This document shows positions 23,487 to 32,498 of a stretch of 47,961 nt of DNA, piece after piece. Position 1 is the first letter of the stretch. The number at the start of each line of letters is the position of its first letter. The position numbers and the translations under genes were made by a program. Source of the stretch: Actinomycetota bacterium. Its GTDB lineage: Bacteria; Actinomycetota; Thermoleophilia; Solirubrobacterales; Solirubrobacteraceae. Location of the stretch: assembly GCA_005798685.1 (NCBI GenBank), contig SYIT01000068.1, positions 1-47,961 of the forward strand. The letters are read 5' to 3'. The notes beneath the pieces were generated by a model that saw only the letters and a program-made list of their open reading frames with translations, did no database searches and was not told the origin of the DNA.

Positions 23487-24920
23487 TTATGAGGATACGC
23501 CCGGAGAACCGAGCTGGGGTGCCGCACCGTAGCCAACAAGCTCCGGCGCCGGGATGAACTGTTCCGGGTAGCCATACATGCCGTGCTCGGAGATGTCGAG
23601 CCCAGCGTCTTCTTCGGCCTCAGTTACGCGCAGGCCGTAGGTTTTCTTGACTGCCCAGAAGGTTGCGTAGCTCGTGATGAAGACAAAGGCGAAGACGACG
23701 ACGACGCCGATTACCTGGTCGCTGAGCTGGCCAAACGAGCCGGTGTAGAAAAGGCCGCCCTTGCCGACAGCGTTGTACTCGGCCAGCACCGGCAGCGTGA
23801 AGAGGCCACAGGAGAGCGTGCCCCAGACGCCGCAAAGACCGTGGGCGGTTAGCGCACCGACAGGATCGTCGAGCCGCTTGTCGATTGCGTAAACGCCGAG
23901 CGGGACGATGAAACCGGCGATCAGCCCGATCACGACGCCGGCCCAAGGCGCCACGTAACCCGAAGGTGCGGTAACTGCCACGAGCGCGCCGATCATGCCG
24001 TTGCCGGCCATGCCGATGTCGATCGTGCGCGTCTTCAGCCAGCTGACCAGCAGCGCGCCGACCGTGCCAGCGCCCCCGGCCAACAGTGTCACCAGCGCCA
24101 CCTCGGTAAAGCGGCCGTCCATCGCGCCGAGCGTTGAGCCCGGGTTGAAGCCGAACCAGCCGAGCAGCAGGATGATCACGCCAAGGCCGAAGAGCGGCAT
24201 GTTGTGGCCGGGGATCGCCCGCGGTCGCCCCTGCGCGTCGTATTTGCCTTTGCGCGCGCCGAGCAGCAGCAGTACCGCGAGGCCGGCTGTTGCGCCGACG
24301 AGATGGACGGCGGTCGAACCGGCGAAGTCCTGCATGCCGAGGTTGGCCTGCAGCCAGCCGCCGCCGAAAACCCAGCCGGAGGCGACCGGGTAGATCAGGC
24401 CGGCGAAGATCACGGCGAAGATCACGTAGACGCCGAACTTGATCCGCTCCAGCGTCGTTCCCCAGACGATCGCCAGCGAGACGGCGCAGAAGACGAACTG
24501 GAAGAACCACTTTGATTCGACCGTCGCGTCAGAGAAGCCCATCACCGGGAATGCGGTCGTCGGGTCGCCGTAGTCGCGCAGGAAGAAGCCTTCGGTTCCG
24601 ATGATCTTGCCACTAGCACCACCGAAAGCGAGCGCGAAGCCAACCGCCCAGTAAACGATTGCCGCGATCGAGAAGTTGGTCAGAATCTTGGCGACGACCG
24701 TGCCGGCATTCTTTCCGCGCGAGAAACCGATCTCGAGGAGCGCAAAGCCGGCCTGCATGAAGAGCACCAGACAGGCGGCTACAAATACCCACATCGAGTT
24801 GATGCCGACCGTGTCGGGGACGCCAACGGCGTCGAAAACGTCGGCCGAGGCGACGGCCGGCGCCGCCAGCAACGTCACGGCGCTGGTGATTGCGGTGGTG
24901 AGCAGTACAGAGCGCTTCAT
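23487..24920 (-). CDS. amt: Ammonium transporter (Amt/AmtB)
   Basis: The ATG at 24920 has GGAGG 6 bases upstream and gives a 477-residue protein; a longer open frame begins at 24974 without such a site. The first 27 residues (MKRSVLLTTAITSAVTLLAA) are a cleavable signal, as in E. coli AmtB. Eleven membrane helices follow, with QAGFALLEIGFSRGKNA near the gate. Pore His residues lie in DFAGSTAVHLVGATAG and LTAHGLCGVWGT. The C-terminal tail has GLDISEHGMYGYPEQF, the region that contacts PII. It imports ammonium for glutamine synthetase. glnB follows and glnN is divergent. Confidence 0.95.
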   Translation of the reverse strand: MKRSVLLTTAITSAVTLLAAPAVASADVFDAVGVPDTVGINSMWVFVAACLVLFMQAGFALLEIGFSRGKNAGTVVAKILTNFSIAAIVYWAVGFALAFGGASGKIIGTEGFFLRDYGDPTTAFPVMGFSDATVESKWFFQFVFCAVSLAIVWGTTLERIKFGVYVIFAVIFAGLIYPVASGWVFGGGWLQANLGMQDFAGSTAVHLVGATAGLAVLLLLGARKGKYDAQGRPRAIPGHNMPLFGLGVIILLLGWFGFNPGSTLGAMDGRFTEVALVTLLAGGAGTVGALLVSWLKTRTIDIGMAGNGMIGALVAVTAPSGYVAPWAGVVIGLIAGFIVPLGVYAIDKRLDDPVGALTAHGLCGVWGTLSCGLFTLPVLAEYNAVGKGGLFYTGSFGQLSDQVIGVVVVFAFVFITSYATFWAVKKTYGLRVTEAEEDAGLDISEHGMYGYPEQFIPAPELVGYGAAPQLGSPGVSS

Positions 24921-25171
24921 CGGACCTCCAGATCGATTTGATCGGAAGTGTTGCGGCGCATCGGCGCCGCGCAATTAGCCGCAGGTAGAAAGATCTAACG
25001 CCGGCGCTCTCCAATCTGGACAACGGGGGCGCGGCCAGCCCGCCCCGCTTGGGCGCACCGCGCGGCACTCGATTTAGACATCGGGATAACGTGCGCGAAC
25101 GAGATCGCTTCTAATCTCGACATTCGTCACTCGCGCGTAGAGCGCAAAAACCAACAAATCTGGAGATCAAG

Positions 25172-27322
25172 ATGGCTTCGAAAACCCGTCAGCAGAACGT
25201 AATCGCGGCTCAGTGGGCAGCAGCCGGGGACGGCAGCGGCCAGTCCGACATCACCGATTCGGCGGCCGCCATCTACGGCGAGAACGTCTTCAACCTGGCC
25301 GCCCAGAAAGCGCGGCTGCCGAAGACCGTCTTCGCCAAGCTGCAGAAGACGCTCGCCGACGGCGCGCCGCTCGACCCGGCCCTAGCCGACGCCGTCGCCG
25401 ACGCGATGCGCTCTTGGGCGATGGAGCACGGCGCAACGCACTTCACGCACTGGTTCCAGCCGCTGACGAACATGACGGCCGAGAAGCACGACTCGTTCTT
25501 TGAGCCGGTTGCCGACGGCACCGCAATCGCCAAGTTCTCAGGCAAGGAGCTGATTCAGGGCGAGCCTGACGCATCCTCGTTCCCAACCGGCGGCATCCGC
25601 GCCACCTTTGAGGCCCGCGGATACACGGCTTGGGACCCAACATCGCCGGCCTTCATCCTTGAGAACCCGAATGGTTCGGTGCTCTGTATCCCGACCGCAT
25701 TCGTCTCCTGGACCGGCGAGGCGCTCGACCACAAGACGCCGCTGCTGCGCTCGATGGACTCGCTCTCAAGCGTTGCCCTGAGGGCACTGAAGCTGTTTGG
25801 CGACAAGGCCGCTGGCCGCGTCTTCACGACAGTCGGCCCGGAGCAGGAGTACTTCCTGATTGACGAGCAGTATTTCTACGAGCGGCCCGATCTCTACACG
25901 ACCGGCCGCACGCTATTCGGCGCCAAGCCGCCGAAGGGCCATGAGCTCGACGAGCACTACTTCGGAACGATTCCAGAGCGCGTATTGGCCTGCATGCTCG
26001 AAACCGAGCGCGAGCTGCAGCGGCTCGGCGTGCCAGTGAAGACGCGCCACAACGAGGTTGCCCCATCGCAGTACGAACTGGCGCCGATCTTCGAGAACTC
26101 GAACGTCGGTTCCGACCACCAGCAGCTGACAATGCAGGTGCTCGAGAATGTCGCTCGTCGCTATGGCCTTGTCTGCCTGATGCACGAGAAGCCATTCGCC
26201 GGTGTCAACGGCTCCGGCAAGCACAACAACTGGTCGATGGGCACCGACAGCGGCCAGAACCTGCTTGAGCCAGGCGACACGCCGGCCGAAAACATTCAGT
26301 TCCTCTTCTTCTGCGTCGCCGTTATCGCCGCCGTTGACCGCCACCAGGAGATGCTCCGCGCCAGCGTTGCCAACGTCGGCCAGGATCACCGCCTTGGCGC
26401 CAATGAGGCGCCGCCGGCGATCGTCTCGATCTTCCTTGGCAGCGAGCTCGAGCGAGCCTTCAACGCCGTTGCCTCGGGGAAGGCCGCCGACAGCGCGGCC
26501 GGCAACTTCCTCGGCCTTGGCACACCGGTGCTGCCGCCGCTGCCGCTCCACGGTGGCGACCGCAACCGCACCTCGCCATTCGCATTTACCGGCAATAAGT
26601 TTGAGTTCCGCGCGCTTGGCTCGAGCATGTCGCTCGGTTTTGTCAACACGGCGCTGAACACAATCGTCGCTGAGTCGATCGACATCATGGTTGACGAGGT
26701 TGAGGCGGCGAAGAAGAAGGGTAAGAAGCGCCCCGAAGCGATCCTCGAGACGATCAAGAAGAACTGGAGGGCACACAAGCGGATCGTCTTTGACGGTGAC
26801 GGCTACGCCGACGCATGGCAGAAGGAGGCGGCCAAGCGCGGCCTGGCAAACCTGCGCACGACTCCCGACGCGCTGCCTTGGCTGGTTGCGAAGTCGACGA
26901 TTCAGGTATTTGAGCGCTACGACGTTCTCAACGAGCGCGAGCTCGAGGCCCGCTTTGAGGTTGCCGTTGAGCAGTATTCAACAAAGCTGAACATCGAAGC
27001 TGAAACCGCCGCTTCGATCGCCCGGACGATGATCCTTCCAGCTGCCGTGCGCTACCTCGCCGAGTGCAAGGAGGCCGGGGTGACGGCGCTGGCCAGCGAG
27101 CTAAAAGCCTCGACCGACGAGCTGGTCAAGCGGCTGAAGGTGCTGGAGAAGGCCAACGCGAGCCACCCGGCCGCTGATGGGCTCAAAGAGGCCGAGTACA
27201 TGCGCGATAAGGTGATTCCCGCGATGGACAAGGCGCGCGATACGGCCGACAAGCTCGAAGGGCTGGTCGCCGACGATCTTTGGCCGCTCCCGAAGTACTC
27301 GGAGATGCTCTTCATCAAGTAG
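25172..27322 (+). CDS. glnN: Type III glutamine synthetase
   Basis: A 716-residue protein, the size of GSIII and much larger than GSI (about 470). Characteristic blocks are [18 protein letters not shown] (GSIII N-terminal domain), [10 protein letters not shown] (metal-binding Glu), [38 protein letters not shown] and the nucleotide-site region [18 protein letters not shown]-terminal helical extension follows. It makes glutamine from glutamate, ammonia and ATP and forms dodecamers. No adenylylation loop like that of GSI-beta is seen. GGAGATCAAG precedes the ATG. It is divergent from amt-glnB across a 251-base region that must hold the promoters of both. Confidence 0.95.
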
Positions 27323-28214: not shown

Positions 28215-28799
28215 TTAGTGGTGCTCTGAAGGCATTGGCGCATCGACGCCTAAGCTGCTGCGCATCTTTAAGATCTCTTTTTCTTGTGCAACCAGAATCG
28301 CCTGGGCAACGGCCTTTAGTTCGGGATCCTGACCCTTCGCGAGTAAAACCTTGCTCATCGCGACCGCCCCTTCGTGGTGAGGAATCATCAACTTCAAGAA
28401 TGCCTCATCAAAGCGATCCGCGGTCTTTAGCGAATCTGTCTCACCGCTCATGCCGGCCATGTGGTCCGCGAGCCCCAGCGAGCCACGCTCGGCGCCTGCA
28501 TTGGCGAGCCGCGTTTCGGCGGCTGTGAGTGTTTCGATCTCGTCGGCCTGACTTTTGACGATATTTGCCGCTAGCTCACGCACAAAAGCACTCTCGCCGC
28601 GATCCTGAGCAATCTCCGCCATCTCAATTGCCGACTCGTGGTGGGGAATCATCTCCGCCGCGAAGGCCCGGTCGAGAGCCAGCCCCGAGCTTGCCGTCGC
28701 TGCGCCGGTCTCGTGATCGCCGTCGTGCCCAGCGCAACCAGCCAGAGTCAGCAATCCTAAAGCCGCGCATGCGACGAGACTCAAAATCTTGGTTCTCAT
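28215..28799 (-). CDS. DUF305 lipoprotein
   Basis: A 194-residue lipoprotein with a signal ending LAGC (Cys22), then His/Asp-rich HDGDHETG. The DUF305 four-helix, ferritin-like domain carries two diagnostic repeats, MIPHHESAIEMA and MIPHHEGAVAMS, each with a His pair that could bind metal. The end SEHH adds further His. DUF305 proteins are often found with copper genes, and a periplasmic metal-binding or stress role is suspected. No copper gene is next to it here. The divergent neighbour is metH. Confidence 0.9.
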   Translation of the reverse strand: MRTKILSLVACAALGLLTLAGCAGHDGDHETGAATASSGLALDRAFAAEMIPHHESAIEMAEIAQDRGESAFVRELAANIVKSQADEIETLTAAETRLANAGAERGSLGLADHMAGMSGETDSLKTADRFDEAFLKLMIPHHEGAVAMSKVLLAKGQDPELKAVAQAILVAQEKEILKMRSSLGVDAPMPSEHH

Positions 28800-28875
28800 T
28801 CGAACTCAGACTAGCGTGCCGTAGCGGGCATCGGTTGGACCCAAAGACTCCCACGCTGCAGCCTCAGAAGGTGCA

Positions 28876-28916
28876 CGCGAGACCTTGACACAGTTATGTC
28901 AAGGTTTCGCGTTTTT
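28876..28916 (+). promoter_or_regulatory. 15-base-pair hairpin followed by five T in the metH leader
   Basis: Arms 28876-28890 and 28897-28911 pair over 15 positions (CGCGAGACCTTGACA with TGTCAAGGTTTCGCG, one G-T pair). The loop is the six bases CAGTTA, and TTTTT follows at 28912-28916. This is the form of an intrinsic terminator, yet it ends 18 bases before the metH start and no plus-strand gene ends nearby. It may be an attenuator, a processing signal, or as DNA a dimeric operator covering a TTGACA box. Which of these applies is undecided. Confidence 0.6.
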
Positions 28917-28934
28917 CTGCTAATCTTGGTGGTA

Positions 28935-31900
28935 ATGAGGGATTACCTGGCCGCAATCAACCGGCGCGTCGTCGTCTTCGACGGCGGCATGGGCGCGACG
29001 CTCGAGCAGTTCGACCTCACATCCGAGGATTTCGGCGGTCTTGCGGGCAAGTGCCATGAGGTGCTGATCCTCAACCGTCCTGACGTAATCGAGGGTGTGC
29101 ACACTTCGATGGTTGAGGCGGGAGCAGAGGTCGTTGAGACCGACACCTTCCAGGCCAGCCGACTGAAGCTCGAAGAGTGGGGTCTTGCCGATCACACGTT
29201 GGAGATAAACCGGCGCGCCGGCGAGATCGCCCGCGCCGCAGTTGGTGAGGATCGCTTCGTCGCCGGCTCGATCGGTCCTACCGGGCAGCTCCCCTGCTCC
29301 GATGATCCAACGCTCGGCGCAATCAGCTTCCGCGAACTGGTGACGATCTTCGAAGAGCAGGCGCGCGGACTGCTCGAAGGCGGCGTTGACCTGCTGCTGA
29401 TCGAAACAGCGCAGGACATCTTGGAAGTGAAGGCGGCGATCTTCGGCGCCCGCGAAGCGTTCGTAACGGCCGGGCGCAGCGTGCCGATCCAAACATCGGT
29501 CTCGCTGCTGCCAAATGGCGGCAAGATGCTGCTCGGCACCGACATCGACGCTGTACTGACGACGCTTGAGTCGCTGAAGGTTGACGCGATCGGCCTCAAC
29601 TGCTCAACCGGCCCCGAGGACATGCGCGACGCGATCCGCTTCCTTGGCGAGTTCTCACCGGTGCCGATCCAGTGCATTCCCAACGCTGGCCTGCCGCTTC
29701 AGGGCCCCGATGGCGAGACGATCTTCCCTGAAACGCCTGAGGCGCTGGCCGAGATCCTCGGCGAGTTCGTTGAGCGCTACGGCGTTGGCATTGTTGGCGG
29801 CTGCTGCGGCGCAACCCCCGCTCACATCGCCGCGATCGCTGAGCGCTGCGGCGGACGGCCGGTAACGCCCCGCCCTGCCCCGCGCGCGCCGCGCGTCAGC
29901 TCGATGATGACGGCGACCTCACTGGTGCAGGACCCAACGCCGACGATCGTCGGAGAGCGCGTCAACTCGCAAGGTTCGCGCAAAGCTAAGGAGATGCTGC
30001 TGGGCGACGACTACGACGGGCTTGTCCAGATCGCCGAGGATCAGGTTGAAGGCGGCGCCCACGTGCTCGACCTTTGCGTCGCGCTGACCGAGCGTGAGGA
30101 CGAGGACGAGCAGATGCGCCAAGTCGCAAAGCGCGTCTCGCTGACGCAGCCATCGCCGCTTCAGATCGACTCGACCGAGCCATCGGTGATTGCCGCCGCG
30201 CTCGACCAGATTCCCGGCCGAGCGATCGTCAACTCAATCAACCTTGAGGCCGGCCGCGACAAGCTCGACACCGTTGTGCCAATGGCCGTCCAGCACGGCG
30301 CCGCCGTGATCGCTCTGACGATCGACGAGGTCGGGATGGCTAAGACCTCCGAACGCAAGGTCGAGATCGCGCGGCGACTGAAAGAACTCTGCTGCGACGA
30401 GCACGGCCTCGACCCAGAGCTGCTGATTTTTGACGCGCTGACCTTTACGCTGACGACCGGCGACGAAGAATGGCGCCCGTCGGCAGTTGAAACGATCGAG
30501 GGAATCCGCCGGATCAAGGCTGAAATCCCGGGCGTCAAGACCTCGCTGGGCGTCTCGAACGTCTCCTTCGGCGTCTCCTCCAGCGCCCGCGCCGTACTGA
30601 ACTCGGTCTTCCTTCACCACTGCGTCGACGCCGGCCTTGACCTAGCGATGGTCAACCCCAACCACATCACTCCTTACGGCGAGATCTCCGACGAGGAGCG
30701 CGCGCTGGCCGATGACCTCGTCTTCAATCGCCGCGACGACGCGCTGGAACTATTCATCAACCACTTCGAGTCGCGCAGCGGCGAAGATGAGGAAGCCGAG
30801 AAGGCCAACCCTACCGAAGGAATGGAGCCCGAGGAAGCGCTCCACTTCCACATTCTGCGCCGCCGCAAGGAGGGCGTTGAGGACTGGATCGACCTGTCGG
30901 TCGAGAAGATCGGCGCCGTACCGACGCTCAACGATGTTCTGCTGCCAGCGATGAAGGAGGTCGGCGACAAGTTCGGCGCCGGCGAGCTGATCCTCCCCTT
31001 CGTGCTGCAGTCGGCAGAGGTAATGAAGCGCGCCGTTGCCCGGCTCGAGAACTTCCTTGACCGGATTGAGGGCTACACGAAGGGCACGGTCGTTCTGGCA
31101 ACCGTCTTCGGCGACGTCCACGACATCGGCAAGTCGCTCGTCAACACGATCCTGACCAACAACGGCTACACCGTGATTGACCTCGGCAAGCAGGTGCCGA
31201 TTCAAGCGATCCTCGAAGCGGCAAAGGAGCACGAGGCGACCGCGATCGGCCTCAGCGCACTGCTCGTCTCGACTTCGAAGCAAATGCCGCTCTGCATCCA
31301 AGAACTTCAGGCCCAAGGGCTCGACTACCCGGTCTTGATCGGCGGCGCGGCGATCAACAAGGACTTCGGTCTGCGCACGCTCTACCCCGGCGGCCGCGAG
31401 TCAGACGAGGTCTACGAGCCCGGCGTCTTCTTCTGCAAGGACGCCTTCGAGGGCCTCGCGAAGATGGACGCACTGGTTGAGCCTGAGCAGCGTGAAGTGC
31501 TCGTCGCCGAGCTGCGCGCCGACGCGCTGGCGCTGCGCGAGAAGGGCCCCGAGCCGGAGGCGCTGCCAACGGATGACGACAGCGTCCGTTCAGCCGCCAG
31601 CACCGACGTGCCTGTGCCAACGCCGCCATGGTGGGGAGTACAGGAAGTGCCGATCGAGATGGATCAGCTCTTCCACCACCTCGACACCCACGTCCTTTTC
31701 AAACTCCATTGGGGTGGCCGCGGCGTCAAAGGTGATGCTTGGACCGAGCTGCTCGACAACGATTTCCGGCCGCGCCTAGAGCGGATGTGGGCCGAGCAGG
31801 ATTACCTGCGCCCACGCGCGCTGCTCGGCTACTTCCCCTGCTATTCAGAGGGCAACGAGATCGTCGTACTCGACCCAGACGATCGAGAGACCATTCTGAC

Positions 31901-32498
31901 CCGCTTTGTCTGCCCGCGCCAACCGGGCCACGACCGCATCTGCGTAGCCGACTTCTACCGCCCAAAGGACTCGGGGGAGCTCGATCTAGTTGCGCTTCAG
32001 GCTGTAACGGCGGGCTCCGAAGTTACAGATCTGATGGCCAAGCTCGAAGACGATGGCGAGTACGCCGAGCAGCTCTTCGTCCACGGTCTAGGTGTACAGA
32101 CGGCCGAAGGGCTGGCAGAGCTCGTCCATGCTCAGGTGCGCGAGGATCTCGGCATCGGCGAGGCGCAAGGCCGCCGATACTCATGGGGCTATCCGGCCGT
32201 GCCCGACCAATCCGAGCACGAGAAGCTCGACCAGCTGCTCGACCTCAGCCAGATCGGAATGACGCTCACCGACGGCTTCGCGCCCGAGCCTGAACAGTCA
32301 ACGCTGGCAATCATCGCCCACCACCCCGACGCGACCTACTTCGGAATGAAGTCCGGCAAGCTGCCTAGCAACGACCGCCAGCGCGCCGATGACGTGATCG
32401 CCGGCAGCGACCGTGACCCGACGCGACTCGGCAAGATTCCTGACGAAGATCCGCCGCAGCTCAGTGAAGAGCCCGAAGAAGCGCCGGTCGCCAGTTAA
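28935..32498 (+). CDS. metH: Cobalamin-dependent methionine synthase
   Basis: A 1187-residue protein with all MetH modules in order. The homocysteine-binding barrel (1-310) has zinc ligands Cys223 in LNCSTG and Cys290/Cys291 in VGGCCGATP. The methyltetrahydrofolate domain is at about 330-610 (PTIVGERVNSQGSRKAKEM). The cobalamin cap and Rossmann domains are at about 660-880, with DVHDIGKSLVN, His729 being the cobalt ligand. The C-terminal reactivation domain contains ALLGYFPCYSEGNEI and SWGYPAVPDQSEHEK. It transfers a methyl group from methyl-tetrahydrofolate to homocysteine and is repaired by AdoMet. ATG 28935 is preferred; an earlier in-frame ATG at 28896 lies in the hairpin loop. Its stop overlaps the convergent GIY-YIG stop. 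Confidence 0.96.
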   Translation: MRDYLAAINRRVVVFDGGMGATLEQFDLTSEDFGGLAGKCHEVLILNRPDVIEGVHTSMVEAGAEVVETDTFQASRLKLEEWGLADHTLEINRRAGEIARAAVGEDRFVAGSIGPTGQLPCSDDPTLGAISFRELVTIFEEQARGLLEGGVDLLLIETAQDILEVKAAIFGAREAFVTAGRSVPIQTSVSLLPNGGKMLLGTDIDAVLTTLESLKVDAIGLNCSTGPEDMRDAIRFLGEFSPVPIQCIPNAGLPLQGPDGETIFPETPEALAEILGEFVERYGVGIVGGCCGATPAHIAAIAERCGGRPVTPRPAPRAPRVSSMMTATSLVQDPTPTIVGERVNSQGSRKAKEMLLGDDYDGLVQIAEDQVEGGAHVLDLCVALTEREDEDEQMRQVAKRVSLTQPSPLQIDSTEPSVIAAALDQIPGRAIVNSINLEAGRDKLDTVVPMAVQHGAAVIALTIDEVGMAKTSERKVEIARRLKELCCDEHGLDPELLIFDALTFTLTTGDEEWRPSAVETIEGIRRIKAEIPGVKTSLGVSNVSFGVSSSARAVLNSVFLHHCVDAGLDLAMVNPNHITPYGEISDEERALADDLVFNRRDDALELFINHFESRSGEDEEAEKANPTEGMEPEEALHFHILRRRKEGVEDWIDLSVEKIGAVPTLNDVLLPAMKEVGDKFGAGELILPFVLQSAEVMKRAVARLENFLDRIEGYTKGTVVLATVFGDVHDIGKSLVNTILTNNGYTVIDLGKQVPIQAILEAAKEHEATAIGLSALLVSTSKQMPLCIQELQAQGLDYPVLIGGAAINKDFGLRTLYPGGRESDEVYEPGVFFCKDAFEGLAKMDALVEPEQREVLVAELRADALALREKGPEPEALPTDDDSVRSAASTDVPVPTPPWWGVQEVPIEMDQLFHHLDTHVLFKLHWGGRGVKGDAWTELLDNDFRPRLERMWAEQDYLRPRALLGYFPCYSEGNEIVVLDPDDRETILTRFVCPRQPGHDRICVADFYRPKDSGELDLVALQAVTAGSEVTDLMAKLEDDGEYAEQLFVHGLGVQTAEGLAELVHAQVREDLGIGEAQGRRYSWGYPAVPDQSEHEKLDQLLDLSQIGMTLTDGFAPEPEQSTLAIIAHHPDATYFGMKSGKLPSNDRQRADDVIAGSDRDPTRLGKIPDEDPPQLSEEPEEAPVAS

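What the first reader, a model, noticed from the sequence alone, without database searches (positions are those of the whole stretch)
28876..28934. Terminator-like hairpin directly before metH
A 15-pair stem with a six-base loop and five T ends 18 bases before the metH ATG, on the coding strand, with no upstream gene to terminate. It also contains TTGACA inside a perfect 24-base inverted repeat. Upstream, AGCGTG (28813) can pair with CACGCT to form another helix. Together these suggest attenuation by an unrecognised RNA element, or a dimeric repressor site.
Basis: partly seen in the sequence, partly recalled or inferred. Interest (0 to 1): 0.55.

Follow-up and report, generated by a model that had tools for sequence, protein, structure and literature searches.

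The report
MerR operator at a leaderless metH promoter
The hairpin-like sequence before this methionine synthase gene is most likely not an RNA switch but a DNA docking site for a small, apparently undescribed MerR-type regulator that also sits in front of its own gene and the next gene in the methyl cycle (SAH hydrolase), so one protein probably controls methyl-group recycling in a whole group of soil and freshwater Actinobacteria.

Summary
The inverted repeat is real (16-bp arms, 28875-28912, one G-T pair) and exceeds chance. It is very unlikely to be an attenuator. Across 45 operator-bearing metH promoters (of 77 examined) only the inner 24-bp palindrome ACCTTGACA-N6-TGTCAAGGT is conserved, letter for letter, with no compensatory change. 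The outer stem and T-run are not conserved, and every site is followed by a TAnnnT -10 box 6-12 nt before the start codon. The mRNA is therefore probably leaderless and starts downstream of the hairpin. The same palindrome lies directly upstream of a small (about 126 aa) MerR-family gene followed by ahcY (SAH hydrolase): 43 of 44 relatives, and 77 of 80 genome-contig loci. Genomes without this MerR nearly always lack the metH palindrome (12 of 13). Six of nine examined metH leaders in a sister family carry a SAM-I riboswitch instead. Best explanation: an autoregulated MerR-family repressor of the S-adenosylmethionine cycle, doing the job of the ArsR-family SahR of Proteobacteria with an unrelated protein. 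Binding, repression and effector (SAH favoured) are inferred, not shown. The paper searches listed found no published description. New variant of a known kind.

The parts
28875..28912 (.). Only the inner part is conserved.
   Evidence: conservation
28882..28905 (.). Operator core ACCTTGACA-CAGTTA-TGTCAAGGT, predicted binding site of a dimer of the MerR-ahcY regulator; overlaps the -35 region of metH
28912..28916 (+). T-run. At least 5 T in 8 nt after the core occurs at only 11 of 45 metH sites; not a conserved terminator feature
28918..28926 (+). Predicted extended -10 element TGC-TAATCT (TGnTAnnnT) of the metH promoter; start of transcription inferred at or within a few nt of 28935
   Evidence: 45 of 45 metH sites; mycobacterial TANNNT rule from PMC3898074
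28935..32498 (+). metH, cobalamin-dependent methionine synthase (1187 aa); probably leaderless
28215..28799 (-). Divergent DUF305 gene upstream; not thought part of the regulon

Best explanation
The palindrome is a DNA operator. A dimer of a small, sensor-domain-less MerR-family protein, encoded in the same genome directly in front of ahcY (G000:C55, locus L002:414-800 on the minus strand), binds ACCTTGACA-N6-TGTCAAGGT at the metH promoter and at its own merR-ahcY promoter, and in two relatives at metF. At metH the operator covers the -35 region of a leaderless, extended -10 promoter. At merR-ahcY its right half is itself the -10 box (TGnTAAGGT). Bound protein would therefore block RNA polymerase at both and be autoregulated. 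When SAH accumulates (methyl groups spent), repression is lifted; AhcY then clears SAH to homocysteine and MetH remethylates it. Shown by sequence: the operator, its genes, its promoter geometry, its co-occurrence with the MerR gene. Inferred: that this MerR binds it, that binding represses, and that SAH is the signal (SAM as co-repressor is the main alternative).
For: (1) Second site in the same genome, 2 mismatches, just upstream of a MerR gene followed by ahcY. (2) Operator next to merR in 43 of 44 relatives with the gene and 77 of 80 loci from genome contigs (the two sets overlap); ahcY starts within 800 nt downstream in 74 of 80. (3) metH operator in 36 of 54 relatives' metH upstream regions plus 9 of 23 more, scores 15-18 of 18, against at most 13 in 290 coding chunks. 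(4) Co-occurrence: 35 genomes have both, 12 neither, 5 MerR without metH site, 1 site without MerR found (G002, 84% complete); Fisher p 2.7e-7 ignoring phylogeny (G051, partial gene, left out). (5) DNA-level conservation: no double change at the ten core pairs over 45 sites. (6) -10 box in 45 of 45 sites, 6-12 nt before the start, chance 10%. (7) Operator-to-(-10) spacing is bimodal, 18-21 or 29-31, one helical turn apart; at merR the site lies about one turn further down, 70 of 77 having TGnTAnnnT as right half. In five merR sites (all of them in or near Solirubrobacter) whose -10 lies downstream (TACACT), the right half is TGTCARGGT again. (8) Where merR and ahcY were parted (G036), the operator stayed with ahcY. 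(9) MerR-fold model, pLDDT 90.7. (10) In sister family f3, 6 of 9 metH leaders carry a SAM-I riboswitch instead.
Against: No binding, expression or ligand data. A TF other than the neighbouring MerR could bind the site. MerR proteins are often activators, and in the short-spacer class the operator lies between a TTGACA-like -35 and the -10 with 18-21 nt, as in MerR activation, so activation there is not excluded. Five genomes with the MerR lack a metH site (G033 and four of family f4), and distant class members keep the merR-ahcY operator in the two f8 loci read (L097, L098) while the nine f5 and f8 metH upstream regions read show no site. metF is a target in only two genomes (0 of 29 others tested). 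G727 has both a MerR gene and a SAM riboswitch at metH.
Confidence: 0.82

Rival explanations
1. Transcription attenuator or riboswitch: the leader is transcribed and the hairpin with its T-run ends transcription unless an alternative helix forms in response to methionine, SAM, SAH or cobalamin.
For: Terminator-like shape in the window; fold more stable than shuffles; metH leaders of family f3 do carry SAM-I riboswitches.
Against: No Rfam match in the window; at E up to 10 only sub-threshold chance hits. No compensatory changes in the ten core pairs, uninterrupted stem of 5 bp or less in 25 of 45 sites, T-run in 11 of 45. -10 box downstream of the hairpin in 45 of 45. Same palindrome upstream of merR-ahcY, where it is imperfect and lies within the promoter.
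Confidence: 0.04
2. Same operator and same MerR protein, but the protein is an activator that realigns a long-spaced promoter in the classical MerR way.
For: 14 of 45 metH sites have 18-21 nt between the left TTGACA-like half and the -10, close to the 19-20 nt of MerR-activated promoters (recalled); the fold is MerR.
Against: 31 of 45 metH sites have 29-31 nt, and at merR-ahcY the operator overlaps the -10 itself in 72 of 77; a classical MerR activator would not be expected to tolerate positions one turn apart. Extended -10 boxes (31 of 45) lessen the need for a -35.
Confidence: 0.12
3. The palindrome is bound by a different dimeric factor (for example HspR or another global regulator), and the neighbouring MerR is coincidental.
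For: Operator resembles the HspR HAIR motif CTTGAGT-N7-ACTCAAG (PMC6102357 passages).
Against: Site and MerR-ahcY gene co-occur and are missing together; NCBIfam HspR cut-off not reached by the first member of the alignment (43.7 against 105 bits) nor by the window genome's own protein (48.6); spacing and half-sites differ from HAIR; perfect third sites are at metF and none was seen at chaperone genes among the sites read.
Confidence: 0.05
4. Rho-independent terminator guarding metH against read-through from the codirectional glutamine-synthetase-like gene found upstream in several relatives.
For: Several genus members have that gene ending just upstream, and ten genus members keep a T-rich stretch.
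Against: The repeat is equally conserved where no such gene is upstream, as in the window, and also upstream of merR-ahcY; T-run hardly found outside the genus.
Confidence: 0.02

Closest known systems
SahR (ArsR family, Proteobacteria; PMC4239095)
   Same: SAM-cycle regulon: regulator itself, ahcY, metH, sometimes metF; palindromic operator of about 20-24 bp; regulator linked to its targets
   Different: Protein is MerR-family, not ArsR; operator ACCTTGACA-N6-TGTCAAGGT; no metK site was seen; effector unknown here; found only in one class among the phylum sample searched
HspR (MerR-family repressor of chaperone genes; HAIR CTTGAGT-N7-ACTCAAG; PMC6102357)
   Same: Short MerR protein without a separate sensor domain (HspR part recalled); nearest NCBIfam model; operator half-site CTTGA; acts on its own promoter
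   Different: Far below the HspR cut-off; half-site CTTGACA with N6; operon partner is ahcY, not dnaK
SAM-I riboswitch (RF00162)
   Same: Precedes metH in a sister family of the same order
   Different: RNA aptamer; absent from the window; appears where the operator is missing
MerR-type activators (CueR, CadR, NmlR)
   Same: HTH and fold; dyad near the promoter core
   Different: Position relative to the -10 varies by whole helical turns; no conserved cysteine for metal or redox sensing

Membership tests
MerR superfamily of transcription factors | N-terminal MerR winged HTH | tested here: met
   Pfam MerR_1 50.4 bits (cut-off 21.6), MerR 44.1 (28.2); model aligned over residues 1-85 with many MerR structures
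MerR superfamily of transcription factors | Operator dyad in a 19-20 bp promoter spacer (activator geometry, recalled) | tested here: inconclusive
   18-21 nt at 14 of 45 metH sites, 29-31 nt at 31; overlaps -10 at merR
SahR | ArsR-family HTH | tested here: not met
   Only MerR families matched in Pfam
SahR | Core regulon regulator + ahcY + metH + metF + metK | tested here: inconclusive
   Regulator, ahcY, metH met; metF in two genomes only; metK not tested by itself
SahR | Responds to SAH | not testable with these tools
   needs binding or expression assay
HspR | NCBIfam NF047375 equivalog score | tested here: not met
   48.6 bits for the window genome's protein against cut-off 105; 43.7 for L193
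HspR | HAIR operator CTTGAGT-N7-ACTCAAG | tested here: not met
   CTTGACA-N6-TGTCAAG
Rho-independent attenuator / riboswitch | Conserved pairing with covariation and U-tract downstream of the start of transcription | tested here: not met
   no double changes in core pairs, T-run in 11 of 45; -10 downstream of hairpin; start site itself not mapped
SAM-I riboswitch RF00162 | Covariance-model match upstream of metH | tested here: not met
   none in window; present in six f3 leaders

The most novel reading that the evidence does not exclude
The MerR protein has no sensor domain (about 126 aa, only HTH plus helices with a conserved W-x3-EQxKH patch), and its nearest named relative HspR works with DnaK as a partner (recalled; paper titles point the same way). 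The most novel reading is that AhcY, the enzyme made from the same operon, is itself the sensor: free or SAH-loaded AhcY binds the MerR dimer and sets its grip on metH and ahcY, so enzyme occupancy rather than a small-molecule pocket in the regulator reports the SAM:SAH ratio.
Probability: 0.1. Interest if true: 0.8.

Novelty: new variant of a known kind. Interest (0 to 1): 0.56.

Why it matters
It gives a testable regulator, operator and target set for methyl-cycle control in Thermoleophilia, for which my paper searches showed none. It would be a second, unrelated protein family doing SahR's job. It also shows, within one order, a protein operator and a SAM-I riboswitch taking each other's place at metH. 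And it shows a case where an apparent terminator hairpin before a gene is a DNA operator at a leaderless promoter, a trap for automated attenuator prediction in Actinobacteria.

Tried and rejected
RNA attenuator: rejected on conservation pattern, promoter position and Rfam. Second helix AGCGTG/CACGCT: not kept in G010 (by eye). Weak third sites in the genus (G000:C11:15982 and apparent orthologues, 2-3 mismatches): in G000 inside a Rieske-type coding sequence, taken as chance. L040 and other 3-mismatch sites: taken as chance. A 3-mismatch site before a purU-like gene in G059, a genome without the MerR: not counted. metF as a general target: not supported, 0 of 29 (34 of 37 genomes had metF, and those whose loci were not returned or lacked the start were not examined). 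Metal or redox sensing: no invariant or nearly invariant cysteine in 48 members. In the structure search the C-terminal helices (about residues 86-118) were barely covered by matches, and I did not predict them apart. Rows dropped before counts: G051 (partial MerR) from the co-occurrence table; G602 and G533 (partial metH); relatives whose metH start was not available (G001, G005, G016, G019, G030, G050, G058). Some record titles (Bifidobacterium breve, Chlamydiae, Chloroflexi) look mislabelled and were not used as taxonomy.

Full report
WHAT IS THERE. The repeat is as described: arms 28875-28890 and 28897-28912, loop CAGTTA, one G-T pair, T-run 28912-28916, ATG of metH at 28935. It is the only 16-bp near-perfect short-loop repeat in the window, and ten Markov windows had none. 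MetH is a full cobalamin-dependent methionine synthase by its domains, slightly under NCBIfam's metH cut-off (982.9 against 1010.85). Rfam finds nothing in the window at gathering thresholds and only sub-threshold chance matches to the leader at E up to 10.

CONSERVATION. A metH match was listed for 61 of 61 relatives, though in several only a partial or weak one. In 54 of them the region upstream of the metH start could be read; a further 23 came from 26 class members searched. Of these 77, 45 carry ACCTTGACA-N6-TGTCAAGGT (score 15-18 of 18; 290 coding chunks reached at most 13). Over the 45, the ten core pairs show no double change: the letters are kept, not the pairing. Position 7 often differs from A (26 of 45 keep it), which breaks the pair. 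The outer pairs of the hairpin are formed in about half of the sites, the uninterrupted stem is 5 bp or less in 25 of 45, and a T-rich stretch follows in 11 of 45, ten of them in the window's genus. This is how a protein-binding site behaves, not how an RNA hairpin behaves.

PROMOTER. Every one of the 45 sites is followed by TAnnnT ending 6-12 nt (42 of 45: 6-9 nt) before the start codon, against 10% expected after shuffling. In 31 of 45 it is an extended TGnTAnnnT. TANNNT centred 7-12 bp before the start of transcription holds for 73% of primary starts in M. tuberculosis (PMC3898074, passages seen), so these messages are probably leaderless and begin after the palindrome. That is inferred; no start site was mapped. 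The gap from the left half-site to the -10 is 18-21 nt in 14 sites and 29-31 nt in 31, one helical turn apart.

THE SECOND SITE AND THE PROTEIN. A pattern search of the window's own genome gave a second site with two mismatches at G000:C55:805-826. It lies just before a 128-aa MerR-family gene followed by the start of ahcY. A pattern search of 61 relatives found matches in 54 genomes, while the reversed pattern found fewer (some 3-mismatch matches there are chance). An alignment of this MerR family finds strong matches (E below 1e-50) in 44 of 61 relatives, matches in 166 of 399 genomes of the class and 11 of 396 of the phylum sample, all within the class. Next to merR the operator is present in 43 of 44 and in 77 of 80 loci from genome contigs, which include Solirubrobacter, Conexibacter and Patulibacter species. 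ahcY starts within 800 nt downstream in 74 of those 80; two of the other six are contig ends. The exception G036 is instructive: a collagen-like gene lies between merR and ahcY, and the operator is found in front of ahcY, not merR. Two distant loci of another family (L097, L098) still have merR-ahcY with the operator.

OPERATOR GEOMETRY AT merR-ahcY. In 70 of 77 sites the right half-site reads TGnTAnnnT (mostly TGGTAAGGT), so it is operator and extended -10 at once; two more have TAnnnT without the TG. In the remaining five (L202, L203, L208, L213, L229) the -10 (TACACT) lies downstream and the right half is TGTCAAGGT or TGTCAGGGT. The operator thus sits at three positions, each about one turn apart, always touching the core promoter. 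A blocking repressor fits this better than a classical MerR activator, but the short-spacer class would also suit activation.

CO-OCCURRENCE AND REPLACEMENT. Of 53 relatives with both a readable metH upstream region and a clear MerR status (G051 left out), 35 have both, 12 neither, 5 the MerR without a metH site, and 1 (G002, 84% complete) a site without a detected MerR; Fisher p 2.7e-7, not corrected for phylogeny. In family f3 of the same order, six of the nine metH leaders read carry a SAM-I riboswitch (five above the Rfam threshold, L110 just under: 43.9 against 44.4); G727 among them also has a MerR hit, so the exclusion is not strict. The nine f5 and f8 metH upstream regions read have neither. 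Perfect third sites stand before metF in G024 and G027, but 29 other metF upstream regions have none.

THE PROTEIN'S FOLD. AlphaFold2 on 48 family members gives a confident model (mean pLDDT 90.7): MerR winged helix, two further helices and a long C-terminal helix. It matches MerR structures over residues 1-85, including HiNmlR, described as lacking the sensor domain (Z 10.3, rmsd 5.1, 82 aligned) and CvkR (Z 10.4, rmsd 4.5, 75 aligned; the two are tied). No cysteine is invariant or nearly so. Invariant residues outside the HTH include W85, P93, W101, E105 and K108.

WHAT IT MOST LIKELY DOES. The linked genes, ahcY and metH and occasionally metF, are the recycling half of the SAM cycle. The core regulon of SahR, an SAH-responsive ArsR-family regulator of Proteobacteria, is sahR, ahcY, metH, metF and metK (PMC4239095, passages and section 8 read). 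By that analogy the favoured signal here is SAH; SAM as co-repressor is the alternative, supported by the SAM riboswitch that stands in its place in f3. My rough split (judgement, not computed): this MerR binds the site 0.9; it represses 0.8; SAH is the signal 0.5, SAM 0.25. The protein is not a SahR (wrong family) and not an HspR (far below cut-off, different operator), but it works like a SahR built on an HspR-like body.

LITERATURE. Searches for MerR with ahcY, sahH, adenosylhomocysteinase or SAH hydrolase, MerR with methionine terms, and Solirubrobacter with methionine synthase (listings and abstract starts only) showed no description. The library lacks most subscription papers, so this is not proof of absence.

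Noticed in passing
L107, L110, L111, L114, L171, L031 (metH leaders of family f3): SAM-I riboswitch (RF00162) upstream of metH in six of nine f3 genomes read, a sister family of the same order; stands where the operator is in f1 and f2.
   Followed up: partly
L162:5203-5229 (upstream of metH, genome G677, genus g14, no MerR): A different perfect palindrome ACCGAAGGAT-N7-ATCCTTCGGT precedes metH; no inverted repeat was found in two other g14 leaders (L020, L174). Possibly another regulator's operator.
   Followed up: partly
L047 and L051 (G024, G027): Perfect copies of the operator directly before metF in two genomes: recruitment of a further SAM-cycle gene into the regulon.
   Followed up: yes
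L158 (G036): A collagen-like gene on the opposite strand lies between merR and ahcY, and the operator stayed with ahcY.
   Followed up: yes
window 28896-32498: metH has an upstream in-frame ATG inside the hairpin loop giving a 1200-aa frame; the leaderless start at 28935 makes it unlikely to be used.
   Followed up: partly
window 23487-27322: An ammonium-transporter-like gene (named by eye) and a 716-aa glutamine-synthetase-like protein that reaches no NCBIfam glutamine synthetase cut-off; in several relatives that synthetase gene sits immediately before metH on the same strand.
   Followed up: no
records L189, L193, L194, L230, L240, L254, L258: Public records titled Bifidobacterium breve, Chlamydiae or Chloroflexi carry merR-ahcY loci of the Solirubrobacterales type; probably mislabelled or misbinned.
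   Followed up: no
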